From Flavobacteriaceae bacterium (GTDB lineage: Bacteria; Bacteroidota; Bacteroidia; Flavobacteriales; Flavobacteriaceae), in NCBI GenBank assembly GCA_016780065.1, contig JADHML010000010.1:1-37614 (forward strand): DNA of 37,614 nucleotides, in the 5' to 3' direction. How positions within the stretch are numbered: the stretch's first letter is position 1; every line of letters starts with the position of its first letter. Made by a program: the position numbers and the translations under genes. The notes beneath the pieces are model-generated. The model had not been told where the DNA came from, searched no databases, and saw only the letters and a list, made by a program, of their open reading frames with translations. This document shows, in pieces, positions 27,497 through 29,995 of this stretch.

Positions 27497-27811
27497 ATGA
27501 TCCTTACAAACACAGAATTTGTAGCTAACAAAACCATTTCAGAAACTTTAGGTGTTGCAAGAGGCAGTACAGTTCGCAGCCGCAATATTGGAAGAGATAT
27601 TTTCGCTAGTCTCAAAAACATTGTAGGAGGTGAAATAGAAGAATACACCAAACTGCAGGCAGATGCAAGAGAGCAAGCGTTGCAGCGCATGGTTGCCGAT
27701 GCGACCCAAATGGGTGCTGACGCAGTGATAAATATTCGATTCACAACTTCTGTAGTAGCACAGGGTGCATCAGAAATGCTAGCCTATGGAACCGCTGTAA
27801 AATTGAGCTAA
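27497..27811 (+). CDS. YbjQ/UPF0145 family protein
   Basis: A 104-residue protein matching the YbjQ family along its whole length: GVARGSTVRSRNIGRDIFASL (24-44), GGEIEEYTKLQADAREQALQRM (48-69), ADATQMGADAVINIRF (71-86) and a final YGTAVKL. Members form pentamers, and the domain is listed as a putative heavy-metal-binding domain; the actual role is unknown. Its TAA stop overlaps the ATG of the micro-ORF that follows (TAATG at 27809-27813). Confidence 0.92.
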   Translation: MILTNTEFVANKTISETLGVARGSTVRSRNIGRDIFASLKNIVGGEIEEYTKLQADAREQALQRMVADATQMGADAVINIRFTTSVVAQGASEMLAYGTAVKLS

Positions 27812-27906
27812 TGATTTGGATCATAATTGGTATTGCATTGGTAGTGTTGGCGATTATAAAATACAAAGAGCGTCAAAAGGATGATTTTGAGCAAAGAGAA
27901 AACTAA
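27811..27906 (+). CDS. 31-residue single-pass membrane micro-protein
   Basis: The ATG at 27811 overlaps the YbjQ stop as TAATG, the same arrangement as tsaD-rsmE in this operon. The frame encodes 31 residues: a hydrophobic segment (IWIIIGIALVVLAII, residues 2-16) followed by a charged tail (KYKERQKDDFEQREN). This is a typical small membrane protein layout with positive residues just after the helix. No family is recognised. The tRNA-Ser promoter begins 21 bp after its stop, so it closes the tsaD operon. Support comes from the coupling and composition only. Confidence 0.6.
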   Translation: MIWIIIGIALVVLAIIKYKERQKDDFEQREN

Positions 27907-27926
27907 TTTCTTGTTGCATATTTATG

Positions 27927-27957
27927 TTGTCGTTTCGGATTCGAAAATGTATTTTTG
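27927..27957 (+). promoter_or_regulatory. Promoter of the tRNA-Ser locus
   Basis: TTG (27927-27929), a 20-bp spacer and TATTTTTG (27950-27957) match the Bacteroidota housekeeping promoter exactly. Transcription should begin near 27964, about 20 bases before the tRNA-Ser 5' end. Confidence 0.75.
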
Positions 27958-27985
27958 CGCACGCACAAGAAAACGTTCTTACAAA

Positions 27986-28069
27986 GGAGAGGTGCCAGAG
28001 TGGTAATGGAGCAGATTGCTAATCTGTCAACGCGAAAGTGTTGCCAGGGTTCGAATCCCTGTCTCTCCG
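27986..28069 (+). tRNA. tRNA-Ser(GCT)
   Basis: An 84-nt class II tRNA. The acceptor stem GGAGAGG pairs with TCTCTCC (the last pair is a G-U wobble), discriminator G is at 28069, and no CCA is encoded. The anticodon stem GCAGA/TCTGT encloses TTGCTAA with anticodon GCT at 28018-28020, reading AGC/AGU. A long variable arm (CAACGC-GAAA-GTGTTG) and a canonical T arm CAGGG-TTCGAAT-CCCTG confirm tRNA-Ser. Confidence 0.97.
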
Positions 28070-28075
28070 CACCCG

Positions 28076-28109
28076 CCCTTGTAAGTCATTTGATTTACAA
28101 GGGTTTTTT
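28076..28109 (+). terminator. Intrinsic terminator after tRNA-Ser
   Basis: A perfect 9-bp stem CCCTTGTAA/TTACAAGGG (28076-28084 with 28095-28103) with a 10-base loop is followed by six T. It stands 6 bases after the tRNA-Ser end but only 4 bases before the tRNA-Arg 5' end. Confidence 0.8.
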
Positions 28110-28113
28110 ATTA

Positions 28114-28187
28114 GGTCGCGTAGCTCAGCTGGATAGAGCATCTGCCTTCTAAGCAGACGGTCCTAGGTTCGAATCCTAGCGCGATCA
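28114..28187 (+). tRNA. tRNA-Arg(TCT)
   Basis: A 74-nt tRNA. The acceptor stem GGTCGCG/CGCGATC has a single G-U pair, discriminator A is at 28187, and no CCA is encoded. D stem GCTC/GAGC, anticodon stem TCTGC/GCAGA, loop CTTCTAA with anticodon TCT at 28148-28150 (reads AGA), and T arm CTAGG-TTCGAAT-CCTAG are all canonical. No promoter of its own can fit between the terminator and the 5' end, so it may depend on read-through from tRNA-Ser. Its last 57 bases plus one flanking base are repeated at 28441-28498. Confidence 0.97.
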
Positions 28188-28188
28188 C
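28131..28188 (+). repeat. 58-nt tRNA-Arg segment, left copy flanking the GIY-YIG gene
   Basis: This D-loop-to-3'-end part of tRNA-Arg aligns without gaps to 28441-28498, 310 bp away: 46 of 58 positions are identical by hand count. Identity is complete at the left (GGATAG) and almost complete from the variable loop to one base past the discriminator. Ten of the 12 differences are in the anticodon arm, one is in the D stem and one in the T loop. Confidence 0.9.
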
Positions 28189-28203
28189 AAAAGCCCCAAA
28201 TCC

Positions 28204-28446
28204 ATGTATGTGGTTTACATACTTTATTCCTCATCTATAGACCAATATTACATTGGGCACACATCCAACTTGAAGGACAGACTCAGAAGGCACAACGCAG
28301 GGAGAAGCAAAGCAACAAAACATGGTATTCCTTGGGAAGTGAAATACACACAGACATTTACTACAAAATTATTGGCTTACAGAAGGGAGCTGCAATTAAA
28401 AGCCATGAAATCAAAAGTGTTTATTAAAAACCTTATTGATGGATAG
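28204..28446 (+). CDS. Small GIY-YIG nuclease embedded between tRNA-Arg copies
   Basis: An 80-residue, single-domain GIY-YIG protein. The GIY strand is VYILYS (4-9), the YIG strand is YYIGHT (15-20), the catalytic Arg is R26 in LKDRLRRHN, and the metal-ligand Glu is E62 in YRRELQLK. This is the short COG2827-like type with no separate DNA-binding domain; its target is unknown. The ATG lies 16 bases after the tRNA-Arg 3' end with no room for a promoter, so the mRNA 5' end is probably made by tRNA 3' processing. The last codon GGA and the stop TAG (28441-28446) are the D-loop bases GGATAG of the truncated tRNA copy downstream. This suggests nuclease and tRNA fragment form one unit. Confidence 0.9.
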   Translation: MYVVYILYSSSIDQYYIGHTSNLKDRLRRHNAGRSKATKHGIPWEVKYTQTFTTKLLAYRRELQLKAMKSKVFIKNLIDG

Positions 28447-28498
28447 CGCATTCCGATTCTATCGGAACGGTCCTAGGTTCAAATCCTAGCGCGATCAC
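28441..28498 (+). pseudogene. 5'-truncated tRNA-Arg(TCT) copy, right repeat
   Basis: A 58-nt fragment from the D-loop GG to one base beyond the discriminator; the acceptor 5' strand and D stem 5' strand are absent (upstream lies coding sequence). The anticodon arm TTCCG-ATTCTAT-CGGAA is perfectly paired and again carries TCT, but differs from the intact tRNA in four of five stem pairs. The 3' D-stem strand is GCGC rather than GAGC. It therefore derives from a different tRNA-Arg, not from simple decay of the neighbour. The T loop has TTCAAAT instead of TTCGAAT. It cannot form a complete tRNA on its own. Confidence 0.88.
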
Positions 28499-28699
28499 GA
28501 ATAAATCAACAAAAAGTTGAAATAAAACAAGCTCAAAATGAAAAGTTGCTTTGCTTTAAGTAGCACGGTCTTAAAAGATCAATTACTATTAAATCATGTA
28601 AACTCAACCATGCTTGCTGGTTAGATTTATAAAGCTAAAGTATTGAAAAGCTAATACATTAATATGTAAAATCATTTACATGGCCTTATAAAACTAGTC
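28499..28699 (+). other. AT-rich intergenic stretch after the tRNA cassette
   Basis: No open frame, RNA gene or promoter consensus is evident in these 201 bases. A 7-bp inverted repeat ATGTAAA/TTTACAT (28664-28670 with 28675-28681) lies 19 bases beyond the 3' end of the minus-strand lipoprotein gene. It has no T-run, so it is only a weak terminator candidate. Confidence 0.5.
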
Positions 28700-29995
28700 C
28701 TATTCTGAAGAGTGAATGGGCGTTTGACTCAACAATGTCAGTTCAGGCAAATCCGAAAGGTCATACTGGAACAACATCTCCTCACCCACGACCATGGCAT
28801 TCGGATAATCAATAATCACATCATAAGCAAAACCAATTGGATAACTGGTCATGATTTCGGGTTGGGATCTGTCTGTTACATCCAAAACTTTGATTCCTGC
28901 ACTTCCATCACAAATAATTAAATGGTCTTCATAGATTCCCAAACCATGTGGGTTGAAAAGCGATTTGTGTGAAACCACTTGTAAATCCTCAGGTGTTTGA
29001 ATGTCAATGATTTGAAGTTCGTTTAAATCCGTAAAACAATTGGTGCCTCCACGTAGTGTAACATACGCATATTCTAAGTCCGCGACAACCGGATCACAGC
29101 TTCTCATGTGTTCAATTTTATTGATAAAAAGTGGATCGGAAGCATCTGCCACATCATACATCAGCATCCCATTTACAGAACCGACAAAAAGAAGGTCATT
29201 GAGATGGAAGAGCGTTTCTGCTTGGGTTTGTGTATCGATACGTATCCACGGGTTTGGTTTATAGTTTTGAGCCAACTGAAACAACACCAGGTCGCTGAAA
29301 TTGATGGTATACAAATAACCATCAATTGGTAAAAAACGAGCCATCGAACCTGCGGTACTTGTGTTGGATCCAAAGTCAACATCACTACCAGGAACTGCTA
29401 CACCAACATCGTCAAAAGCCAGTTCAGGACCGTATGTGTTGTCTACACGTTCTCTACGTACTTCTGTTTCCCATCCAACAACAATACCCATAGAAGCATC
29501 TACATACTCAGCGAATCGAACATGGCCTTCTTCCCAAATTTCATTTGGAAAGTTCCAATAACTATCATAATAAAAAACATCTTCAACTGTAAAATCTTCC
29601 AAAAACTTAGGGGACTCTAAATTCGATAGATCAAAAACCACAAGAGCCGAAAACATATCTGCGTATAGATGGTTGTCAACGATGGCCATATCCACATTCC
29701 CAGGGATGCTGATAAACGAATGGTTCATGGGATTTGCAGGATTGCTGTTGTCAACGATGTGTATACCTTCCATAGGTTGATTAATGAAGATCATATCTCC
29801 ATAAGTTACAATCTTACCCAATCCTGTTTGAACCTTAGGTTCATCGATAAAAATTTCATCAGCCAAATCAGAGGTTGATTTATACATTGGTGTCACATAA
29901 CTTACATCTACCCATTCTTGGTTATTTGAGTCTTCATCACAACCAAACCAGATAAAAAGAAAGAGAATAAAGAAGGGGAGTTTGGCTTTCATCAT
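28700..29995 (-). CDS. LVIVD-repeat lipoprotein, likely surface-exposed
   Basis: A 431-residue protein starting at 29995 (or at the next ATG, 29992). The N-terminus is a lipoprotein-type signal: hydrophobic FFILFLFIWFGC with C19, then DEDSNN. The acidic stretch after the Cys resembles the Bacteroidota lipoprotein export signal that sends lipoproteins to the cell surface. The lipobox itself (W-F-G-C) is unusual. The remainder is made of LVIVD-type beta-propeller repeats with the recurring pattern 'hhVVDxSNPxxP' (GIHIVDNSNPANP, ALVVFDLSNLESPKF, GMLMYDVADASDPLF, LQIIDIQTPEDLQV, GIKVLDVTDRSQPEI). The ligand and function are unknown. It lies 26 bp downstream of the pgpH-like gene on the same strand. 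Confidence 0.85.
   Translation of the reverse strand: MMKAKLPFFILFLFIWFGCDEDSNNQEWVDVSYVTPMYKSTSDLADEIFIDEPKVQTGLGKIVTYGDMIFINQPMEGIHIVDNSNPANPMNHSFISIPGNVDMAIVDNHLYADMFSALVVFDLSNLESPKFLEDFTVEDVFYYDSYWNFPNEIWEEGHVRFAEYVDASMGIVVGWETEVRRERVDNTYGPELAFDDVGVAVPGSDVDFGSNTSTAGSMARFLPIDGYLYTINFSDLVLFQLAQNYKPNPWIRIDTQTQAETLFHLNDLLFVGSVNGMLMYDVADASDPLFINKIEHMRSCDPVVADLEYAYVTLRGGTNCFTDLNELQIIDIQTPEDLQVVSHKSLFNPHGLGIYEDHLIICDGSAGIKVLDVTDRSQPEIMTSYPIGFAYDVIIDYPNAMVVGEEMLFQYDLSDLPELTLLSQTPIHSSE

What the first reader, a model, noticed from the sequence alone, without database searches (positions are those of the whole stretch)
28114..28498. GIY-YIG nuclease gene bracketed by an intact tRNA-Arg and a truncated second tRNA-Arg: a minimal tRNA-targeting cassette
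The sequence shows tRNA-Arg(TCT), 16 bases, an 80-codon GIY-YIG gene, and then a 58-nt tRNA-Arg 3' portion aligned gap-free to the first. Flanking repeats made of a tRNA 3' portion are the classic mark of elements that insert into tRNA genes and restore them. Here no integrase or recombinase is present, only a tiny nuclease with intact catalytic R26 and E62. From memory, many short Bacteroidota GIY-YIG proteins carry C-terminal tails readable as tRNA T-arm sequence (GSNP-type), which hints at a widespread class. I infer a homing-like selfish element that uses the GIY-YIG enzyme to cut tRNA genes and copies itself together with a tRNA segment.
Basis: partly seen in the sequence, partly recalled or inferred. 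Interest (0 to 1): 0.85.

Follow-up and report, generated by a model that had tools for sequence, protein, structure and literature searches.

The report
Tiny tRNA-gene-invading nuclease element
A 310-base insert in a bacterial chromosome carries one tiny nuclease gene and a displaced, hairpin-bearing piece of the tRNA gene it sits in, and it belongs to a widespread family of very small elements at tRNA genes that our literature searches did not find described.

Summary
In detail: intact tRNA-Arg(TCT), an 80-codon GIY-YIG gene, and a displaced tRNA-Arg 3' piece.

The association is not chance. Of 89 loci of the protein's nearest relatives in Bacteroidia, 83 have a same-strand tRNA within 300 nt or a tRNA fragment within 150 nt; of 30 GIY-YIG genes chosen by Pfam score, 2 do. 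The 83 span 36 host families and 17 isoacceptors. Nuclease relationships follow the tRNA's amino acid (32 changes, shuffled mean 62.8) and hardly the host family (67, shuffled 70.5).

Eight congeners have the same tRNA site without the element, and their downstream flank matches the one behind the displaced piece. The insert is 310 bp.

Best explanation: a free-standing homing-type element that targets tRNA genes and acts like phage SegB, but is chromosomal, usually 307-390 bp, single-domain and Slx1/UPF0213-like. Cleavage is not shown. Intact tRNAs are identical in occupied and empty sites, so the element does not protect itself by recoding the tRNA. The role of the hairpin is open.

The parts
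28114..28188 (+). intact tRNA-Arg(TCT); identical to 7 of 8 congeners up to position 48, T-stem pair changed (C-G instead of A-T)
   Evidence: ARAGORN; Rfam 71 bits; compared with 8 congeners
28204..28446 (+). 80-codon GIY-YIG nuclease gene; stop codon lies inside the displaced tRNA D-arm
   Evidence: ORF; Pfam PF01541 56.3 bits; R26 and E62 conserved; AlphaFold mean pLDDT 93.3; nearest folds UPF0213 and Slx1
28440..28498 (+). displaced tRNA-Arg 3' portion, tRNA positions 17-75
   Evidence: Rfam tRNA 22.1 bits, below the gathering score
28451..28467 (+). hairpin TTCCGAT-TCT-ATCGGAA in place of the anticodon arm; stems of the kind YCCCG or YCCG recur in relatives
28499..28508 (+). native downstream flank of the tRNA-Arg gene, now behind the displaced copy
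   Evidence: homology to congeners ends at 28508 in L262 and L264; mean 8.0 of 10 matches over 8 congeners (two of them only 5 of 10) against null mean 2.8, 0 of 20000 random 10-mers of the window as high
28189..28498 (+). 310-bp insert relative to the empty site (boundaries movable within the repeated tRNA part)
   Evidence: distance between the same tRNA positions in the two copies; no GIY-YIG gene at the site in 8 of 8 congeners

Best explanation
It is a minimal free-standing homing element of bacterial chromosomes that specialises on tRNA genes. The single-domain GIY-YIG enzyme most likely breaks the tRNA gene of its type in one of the arms (inferred). Repair by the host's homologous recombination, guided by the element's own tRNA pieces, then copies in a block made of a tRNA 3' part, often a terminator, and the nuclease gene (inferred). 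The host keeps an intact tRNA gene (shown). The old 3' half is pushed downstream (supported for this window by its native flank). The displaced copy carries a hairpin where the arm was (shown). I read the hairpin as either the mark that makes that copy uncuttable or the enzyme's own cis-site; the data do not decide. Tandem [nuclease + displaced tRNA] arrays and 5'-half arrays (shown) fit repeated rounds of break and recombination, as others showed by experiment for phage SegB.
For: (1) Association: 83 of 89 top-ranked relatives; intact tRNA within 300 nt in 69, fragment within 150 nt in 70, all same strand; opposite-strand tRNA in 2; controls 2 of 30. (2) Empty site in 8 of 8 congeners that show the site, native flank behind the displaced copy. 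Flavobacterium sites: GIY-YIG in 2 of 30, nothing detected in 26 of 30. (3) Nuclease core tree (residues up to 70 only, 87 rows): tRNA amino acid 32 changes against 62.8 shuffled; host family 67 against 70.5; nearest neighbour has the same tRNA amino acid in 58 of 87 and the same family in 16 of 87. (4) Offset between the copies 307-390 bp in 43 of 54 loci, median 361, largest 2046. (5) Purifying selection on the enzyme: dN/dS 0.03-0.15 in 21 pairs of seven Flavobacterium-type loci, some dS near saturation. (6) Tandem arrays, e.g. three 5' fragments, intact tRNA-Asn, then four 3' fragments alternating with GIY-YIG ORFs in L228. (7) Precedent: SegB, a free-standing GIY-YIG enzyme, cuts inside tRNA genes and drives tandem amplification of tRNA plus segB by recombination (PMC13096335, passages). 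Its motif RAWTSGAAC is, on the other strand, GTTCSAWTY, the T-loop by my reading.
Against: No cleavage is shown. Intact tRNAs are identical at occupied and empty sites, so an enzyme that cuts the tRNA gene itself should also cut its own host unless donor cutting is weak or regulated. The 80-residue protein has no separate DNA-binding domain. Both copies in the window share a T-stem pair that the 8 congeners lack, so which copy is 'incoming' rests on a 10-bp flank. In L279 the terminator after the intact tRNA, not the flank after the displaced copy, resembles that of the nearest empty relative. The recurrent stem of the hairpin is not needed by simple site destruction. Right of 28508 the window is not syntenic with congeners.
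Confidence: 0.57

Rival explanations
1. Hairpin-delimited modules. The Slx1-like enzyme recognises the YCCCG..CGGGR hairpin as a DNA structure and cuts the element itself. Released modules reinsert through tRNA homology, so the tRNA type is kept by homology and not by enzyme specificity. Sister GIY-YIG genes would do the same with other dispersed palindromes, like RAYT enzymes with REPs.
For: In the 89 loci, 110 of 129 tRNA-like intervals hold a non-terminator hairpin of 6 bp or more, 58 with a YCCCG stem and 81 with a YCCCG or YCCG stem; 1000 random segments away from tRNA pieces give 113, 1 and 6. YCCCG stems in 0 of 125 intact tRNAs. Nearest folds are UPF0213 and Slx1. Gene-less 5' arrays also carry the hairpin. 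Sister GIY-YIG genes have dispersed palindromes on both sides in 14 of 28 and, held out, 5 of 20, with 1 of 78 far segments. Explains why intact tRNAs need no recoding.
Against: The TCCCGA..TCGGGA palindromes also occur dispersed in genomes without being shown to move. The hairpin position changes with tRNA type, which suits a cut-site mark. 48 of 129 intervals lack a YCCCG or YCCG stem. No enzyme-hairpin contact is shown. The window's own hairpin is a weaker variant.
Confidence: 0.25
2. Passive tandem duplication. tRNA genes duplicate with a neighbouring GIY-YIG gene by ordinary recombination; the enzyme has an unrelated role such as DNA repair.
For: Identical or nearly identical terminators after the intact and displaced copies within a locus (L007, L008, L013, L076) look like local duplication. 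GIY-YIG remnants follow the displaced copy in L066 and L018 by my reading.
Against: 83 of 89 loci at 17 isoacceptors, with nuclease relationships tracking the tRNA over 36 families; empty orthologous sites; hairpin in 110 of 129 tRNA-like intervals.
Confidence: 0.11
3. The enzyme cleaves tRNA as RNA (toxin or defence) and the displaced, hairpin-bearing tRNA pieces are uncleavable decoys or antitoxin RNAs.
For: Hairpins sit in tRNA arms and loops, where many tRNA-cutting toxins act (recalled). Enzyme relationships match tRNA types. Weak PADLOC hits to candidate defence proteins (best E 0.0009).
Against: In the passages of the superfamily survey that I saw, GIY-YIG enzymes are discussed as DNA enzymes, with one fusion that hints at RNA (PMC1564403). 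Many copies are only 3' or 5' pieces. Empty sites and tandem arrays indicate DNA-level gain.
Confidence: 0.06

Closest known systems
Phage T4/T6 SegB, free-standing GIY-YIG homing endonuclease (PMC13096335, passages seen; Brok-Volchanskaya 2008 seen only as a reference there, not held)
   Same: GIY-YIG enzyme gene beside tRNA genes; breaks inside tRNA genes; tandem amplification of a tRNA plus nuclease unit, with microhomology between tRNA and the 3' end of the nuclease gene
   Different: SegB is phage-encoded (the paper reports homologues also in phages of Bacteroidota). The window protein matches no phage record at E<=1e-5, is chromosomal, has 80 residues and one domain, belongs to lineages that keep to tRNA types, and comes with a displaced hairpin-bearing tRNA copy
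Fungal mitochondrial mobile ORFs with duplicated gene 3' ends (Allomyces atp6, Glomus atp6/atp9/cox2/nad3; PMC3630166, passages seen)
   Same: An endonuclease gene inserted with a replacement 3' part of the host gene; the native 3' part is displaced downstream
   Different: Protein genes in mitochondria there, and the inserted part is divergent. Here the targets are tRNA genes in bacteria, both copies are nearly identical outside the arm, and the displaced copy carries a hairpin
REP sequences with RAYT/TnpA-REP enzymes (search listing only)
   Same: Small enzyme gene associated with palindromes; hairpin with a recurrent stem
   Different: RAYTs are HUH-type enzymes (recalled); here GIY-YIG, and the palindrome sits inside tRNA copies
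Integrative elements at tRNA genes with tyrosine recombinases (recalled)
   Same: tRNA 3' end restored by the element; displaced 3' fragment at the far end
   Different: No recombinase; unit usually 307-390 bp; displaced copy interrupted by a hairpin
UPF0213 / prokaryotic Slx1-like stand-alone GIY-YIG proteins (1zg2, Slx1)
   Same: Same minimal domain, nearest by sequence and fold
   Different: I know of no tRNA-gene association described for them (recalled; searches showed none)

Membership tests
GIY-YIG superfamily (PF01541) | GIY-YIG domain with catalytic Arg and Glu | tested here: met
   56.3 bits against cut-off 22.6; E62 invariant and R26 at least 90% conserved in 20 sequences; fold
Free-standing homing endonuclease | Present and absent at orthologous sites, not inside an intron or intein | tested here: met
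   Absent in 8 of 8 congeners that show the site; nothing detected in 26 of 30 Flavobacterium sites; Rfam search of 27600-29000 lists no group I intron
Free-standing homing endonuclease | Site-specific DNA cleavage of the element-less allele | not testable with these tools
   Needs purified enzyme
Free-standing homing endonuclease | Occupied allele differs at the cut site | tested here: inconclusive
   Displaced copies carry a hairpin, but intact tRNAs are identical to those of empty sites
SegB family | Phage-encoded homologue | tested here: not met
   No match to the window protein in 50,697 phage records at E<=1e-5; only weak PHROG homing-endonuclease hits, E 0.0097 and 0.00066, in 2 of 3 proteins
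SegB family | Gene beside tRNA genes; tandem tRNA-nuclease units | tested here: met
   83 of 89 loci; arrays in L228, L192, L176. The window itself has one unit
Group I intron homing endonucleases | Self-splicing intron around the gene; NCBIfam TIGR01453 above cut-off | tested here: not met
   17.4 bits against 56.05; tRNA uninterrupted
tRNA-integrating genomic island | Integrase or recombinase in the element | tested here: not met
   One ORF of 60 codons or more in the 310 bp
REP/RAYT system | HUH tyrosine transposase | tested here: not met
   Only PF01541 found
REP/RAYT-like partnership | Enzyme gene flanked by dispersed palindromes | tested here: inconclusive
   Sister GIY-YIG genes 14 of 28, held-out 5 of 20; tRNA-linked genes 2 of 89 by the same patterns, but with their own hairpins

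The most novel reading that the evidence does not exclude
A distinct class of bacterial mobile element, among the smallest autonomous ones: hairpin-delimited modules permuted around a tRNA arm and moved by a structure-specific single-domain GIY-YIG nuclease, with nuclease lineages dedicated to tRNA types. Its sister nucleases would drive the dispersed palindromic repeats of Bacteroidota in the same way, making GIY-YIG the counterpart of RAYT in this phylum.
Probability: 0.22. Interest if true: 0.92.

Novelty: new variant of a known kind. Interest (0 to 1): 0.8.

Why it matters
If right, a class-wide family of selfish elements of about 310-390 bp, smaller than the insertion sequences I know of (recalled), has gone unrecognised, because the genes look like isolated small nucleases and tRNA pieces like the one here fall below tRNA-finder thresholds. 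It would give a natural set of candidate site-specific nucleases sorted by tRNA type, a reason for tRNA pseudogene arrays in Bacteroidota, and a bacterial relative of a gene drive that leaves the target gene intact. It also makes a question testable: what spreads the palindromic repeats of Bacteroidota, which have no enzyme assigned to them that I know of (recalled).

Tried and rejected
Recoded-rescue homing drive: rejected as stated. The intact tRNA-Arg is identical in occupied L007, L008, L009, L249 and in L230, L241-L245 where nothing was detected, and in occupied L279 and empty L280, L283, L284, L291. Hairpin as a general repeat only: TCCCGA..TCGGGA palindromes are also dispersed in 11 of 12 genomes tried, but the exact pattern is absent from the window's own genome while the window's displaced tRNA still has the variant. 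Tree artefact from tRNA-coded tails: the tree was rebuilt on residues up to 70, with the same result. Prophage or plasmid origin: no match. Viral contigs with the hairpin pattern: 59 stretches, a GIY-YIG gene by my HMM only in L105 and L107; the others were not explained. Flank test in a second genus: inconclusive.

Limits. The 89 loci are best-ranked places: 29 laid by the tool, 60 fetched by me. Of these 60, 59 follow the rank order with neighbouring places merged, and L228 was picked from further down because its places stood in tandem; 3 places (G430, G345:C12, G409:C12) were left out because other loci already covered them. Lower-ranked relatives were not sampled. Of the 6 of 89 without a near tRNA, L141 and L149 have fragments about 200-350 nt away, L203 lies near a contig start, L216 has a tRNA-Asn about 700 nt away, and L184 and L223 lie near a tRNA on the other strand. 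tRNA labels are automatic; two of the four 'Glu' labels (L156, L198) are probably misnamed hairpin copies of tRNA-Val. Two of the 15 loci (L006, L012) are the same places as L151 and L169. The first hairpin count (161 of 187 intervals, random 199 of 935 with 59 YCCCG) counted some places twice and let random segments fall on tRNA pieces; one search mends both. Among the 26 Flavobacterium sites with nothing detected, L229 and L247 show remnants by eye. The palindrome patterns were written after reading those loci, so one search is the fair test. Of 12 congeners, 8 show the tRNA-Arg site; the other 4 are drafts without it. Novelty rests on searches in an open-licence library only.

Full report
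What is in the window. The tRNA-Arg(TCT) gene (28114-28188) is followed by an ORF of 80 codons (28204-28446) whose product is a GIY-YIG domain and nothing else (AlphaFold mean pLDDT 93.3). The ORF's stop codon lies in a second, partial tRNA-Arg (28440-28498) that begins at tRNA position 17. In this displaced piece positions 44-75 are 97% unchanged. In the anticodon arm four of five pairs are replaced by other pairs, making the hairpin TTCCGAT-TCT-ATCGGAA (my reading; hairpin). Nearest solved relatives are UPF0213 (1zg2) and Slx1, a structure-specific nuclease.

It is a family. A protein search in 395 Bacteroidia genomes matched 220 at E<=1e-3. I examined 89 of the best-ranked places, taken without regard to tRNAs except that one (L228) was picked for its tandem repeats. 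69 have an intact same-strand tRNA within 300 nt, 70 a tRNA fragment within 150 nt, 83 one or both, 56 both; 2 have a tRNA on the opposite strand. Without L228 it is 82 of 88. Of 30 GIY-YIG genes of the window's host family chosen by Pfam score, 2 do, and 2 of 20 further ones have a tRNA within 300 nt. The 83 positive loci lie in 36 host families and 57 genera and at 17 isoacceptors of 14 amino acids. In another collection 14 of 15 relatives show the same, though two of the 15 are places also among the 89. One of the 15, L019, is a Peribacteraceae MAG with tRNA-Gly, a GIY-YIG gene and then a tRNA-Gly 3' end (my reading), so the family may reach beyond Bacteroidota.

Anatomy. In 54 loci (the window and the 89) with an intact tRNA before the gene and a fragment of the same tRNA after it, the offset between the two copies is 307-390 bp in 43, with median 361 and maximum 2046. 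In 32 of 54 the tRNA fragment begins at or before the ORF stop. Displaced copies are interrupted by a hairpin whose place goes with the tRNA type in the alignments: the anticodon arm in Val, Arg(tct) and Pro, around position 39 in several Asp and Met loci, the T-loop in some Ser, Leu, His, Ala, Asn and Glu loci, the D-loop in Arg(acg). Of 129 tRNA-like intervals in the 89 loci, 110 hold a non-terminator hairpin of 6 bp or more, 58 with a YCCCG stem and 81 with a YCCCG or YCCG stem; 1000 random segments away from tRNA pieces give 113, 1 and 6. Of 125 intact tRNAs, 38 have some hairpin of 6 bp but none a YCCCG stem. Upstream of some intact tRNAs stand gene-less 5'-half copies with the hairpin, in tandem (L017, L062). 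L228 reads: three 5' fragments, intact tRNA-Asn, then four 3' fragments alternating with GIY-YIG ORFs. A pattern for hairpin plus T-arm finds 51 places in 27 of 395 genomes, with 3 for the reversed control. Of the 30 loci taken from there, three of which are second views of one place, 12 hold a GIY-YIG gene and 16 an ARAGORN tRNA (one of these, L064, is the matched sequence itself).

Evidence of gain. Of 12 congeners searched, eight show the same tRNA-Ser/tRNA-Arg block and none of the eight has the gene. The ten bases after the displaced copy match the congeners' tRNA-Arg flank in 8.0 of 10 positions on average, from 5 to 10 (null mean 2.8; 0 of 20000 random 10-mers as high), whereas the bases after the intact copy match in 3.1. 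Homology to congeners then ends at 28508 in L262 and L264. So the displaced copy sits on what looks like the native flank, and the inserted length is 310 bp. In Flavobacterium, of the 30 best-matching tRNA-Pro/tRNA-Arg sites from 81 genomes, 2 carry the gene and 26 show neither gene, fragment nor hairpin, though two of those 26 have remnants by eye.

Evidence of target fidelity. On a tree of the enzyme's residues up to 70, so without tRNA-coded tails, the tRNA's amino acid needs 32 changes (shuffled mean 62.8, lowest 57), while host family needs 67 (shuffled 70.5, lowest 67). The nearest neighbour shares the tRNA amino acid in 58 of 87 rows and the host family in 16 of 87. It is a strong tendency, not a rule of one lineage per tRNA. 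A starred branch of 14 rows holds 11 Met-linked enzymes from several families, and another of 28 rows holds 15 Val- and 9 Arg-linked ones, while Asp- and Pro-linked enzymes lie on several branches. The gene is under purifying selection: dN/dS 0.03-0.15 in 21 pairs from seven Flavobacterium-type loci (one named [Flexibacter]), with dS up to 1.9.

How it most likely works. Shown: presence and absence at orthologous tRNA sites, an intact tRNA gene kept, a displaced 3' part, a hairpin in most displaced copies, tandem arrays, and a conserved enzyme whose lineages keep to tRNA types. Inferred: that the enzyme breaks the tRNA gene and that recombination copies the block. SegB of T-even phages gives the precedent: it cuts inside tRNA genes, its motif read on the other strand is the T-loop consensus (my reading), and it drives tandem amplification of a unit of tRNA-Tyr plus a C-terminally truncated segB by recombination (PMC13096335, passages). 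Mitochondrial mobile ORFs give the precedent for bringing a gene 3' end and displacing the native one (PMC3630166, passages).

The main difficulty is that intact tRNAs are identical with and without the element, so it does not shield the intact copy by changing it. The SegB paper raises the same question and notes that donor cutting by free-standing GIY-YIG enzymes is typically inefficient. A rival that avoids the difficulty is that the enzyme acts on the hairpin and that tRNA homology alone steers reinsertion. The recurrent stem across tRNA types, the Slx1-like fold, and the palindromes around sister GIY-YIG genes (14 of 28; held out 5 of 20 on both sides, 7 of 20 on each side, 1 of 78 far segments) favour it. 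I give homing 0.57 and the hairpin module 0.25; the latter rose by 0.01 because the cleaner hairpin count is stronger than that.

Novelty. Nine searches of an open-licence library listed nothing, by title and start of abstract, that links GIY-YIG genes with tRNA fragments or tRNA hairpins in bacterial chromosomes. A term search in the 2006 survey of the superfamily finds no 'Bacteroid' or 'UPF0213', and 'tRNA' only in other contexts (PMC1564403, passages). Subscription papers and preprints were not searchable. I file it as a new variant of a known kind: free-standing GIY-YIG homing elements.

Noticed in passing
L020-L049 and L309-L328, flanks of GIY-YIG genes: GIY-YIG genes of the same host family that are not at tRNAs are often flanked on both sides by dispersed palindromes (e.g. 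TTCGACTCCGCTCAG, GCTGAAACGAGTTCAGC, TTCCTGCG..GCAGGAA): 14 of 28, held out 5 of 20; far segments 1 of 106 and 1 of 78.
   Followed up: partly
window 28508-28716: Left of the cassette the window is syntenic with congeners; sequence from 28716 on matches other contigs in congeners, where the tRNA-Arg is followed by different sequence. A rearrangement or assembly join may lie just right of the cassette.
   Followed up: no
L248, L253, L254, L255, L257: Some Flavobacterium tRNA-Arg(tct) genes have a wholly different anticodon stem (ACGCA/TGCGT) and a different acceptor stem; L257 has both kinds in tandem. Possibly a replaced or resistant tRNA.
   Followed up: no
whole genomes G177, G316, G115, G454, G328: TCCCGA..TCGGGA palindromes occur in 22-49 places in each of these five genomes against 0-5 for the reversed control (11 of 12 genomes tried have at least one). 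Among the listed sites TCCCGATAGCTATCGGGA is the commonest in G454, while sites in G345 and G328 stand in tandem at 85-90 bp spacing, like 5' tRNA-half arrays.
   Followed up: partly
L019 1219-1700: Peribacteraceae (Patescibacteria) MAG: tRNA-Gly, GIY-YIG gene, then GGGTTACCCGCTCCA, the tRNA-Gly 3' end by my reading.
   Followed up: no
L107 50-800: A viral-collection contig carries three hairpin-bearing tRNA-Pro copies (two full length by my reading) around an intact tRNA-Pro and a GIY-YIG gene.
   Followed up: no
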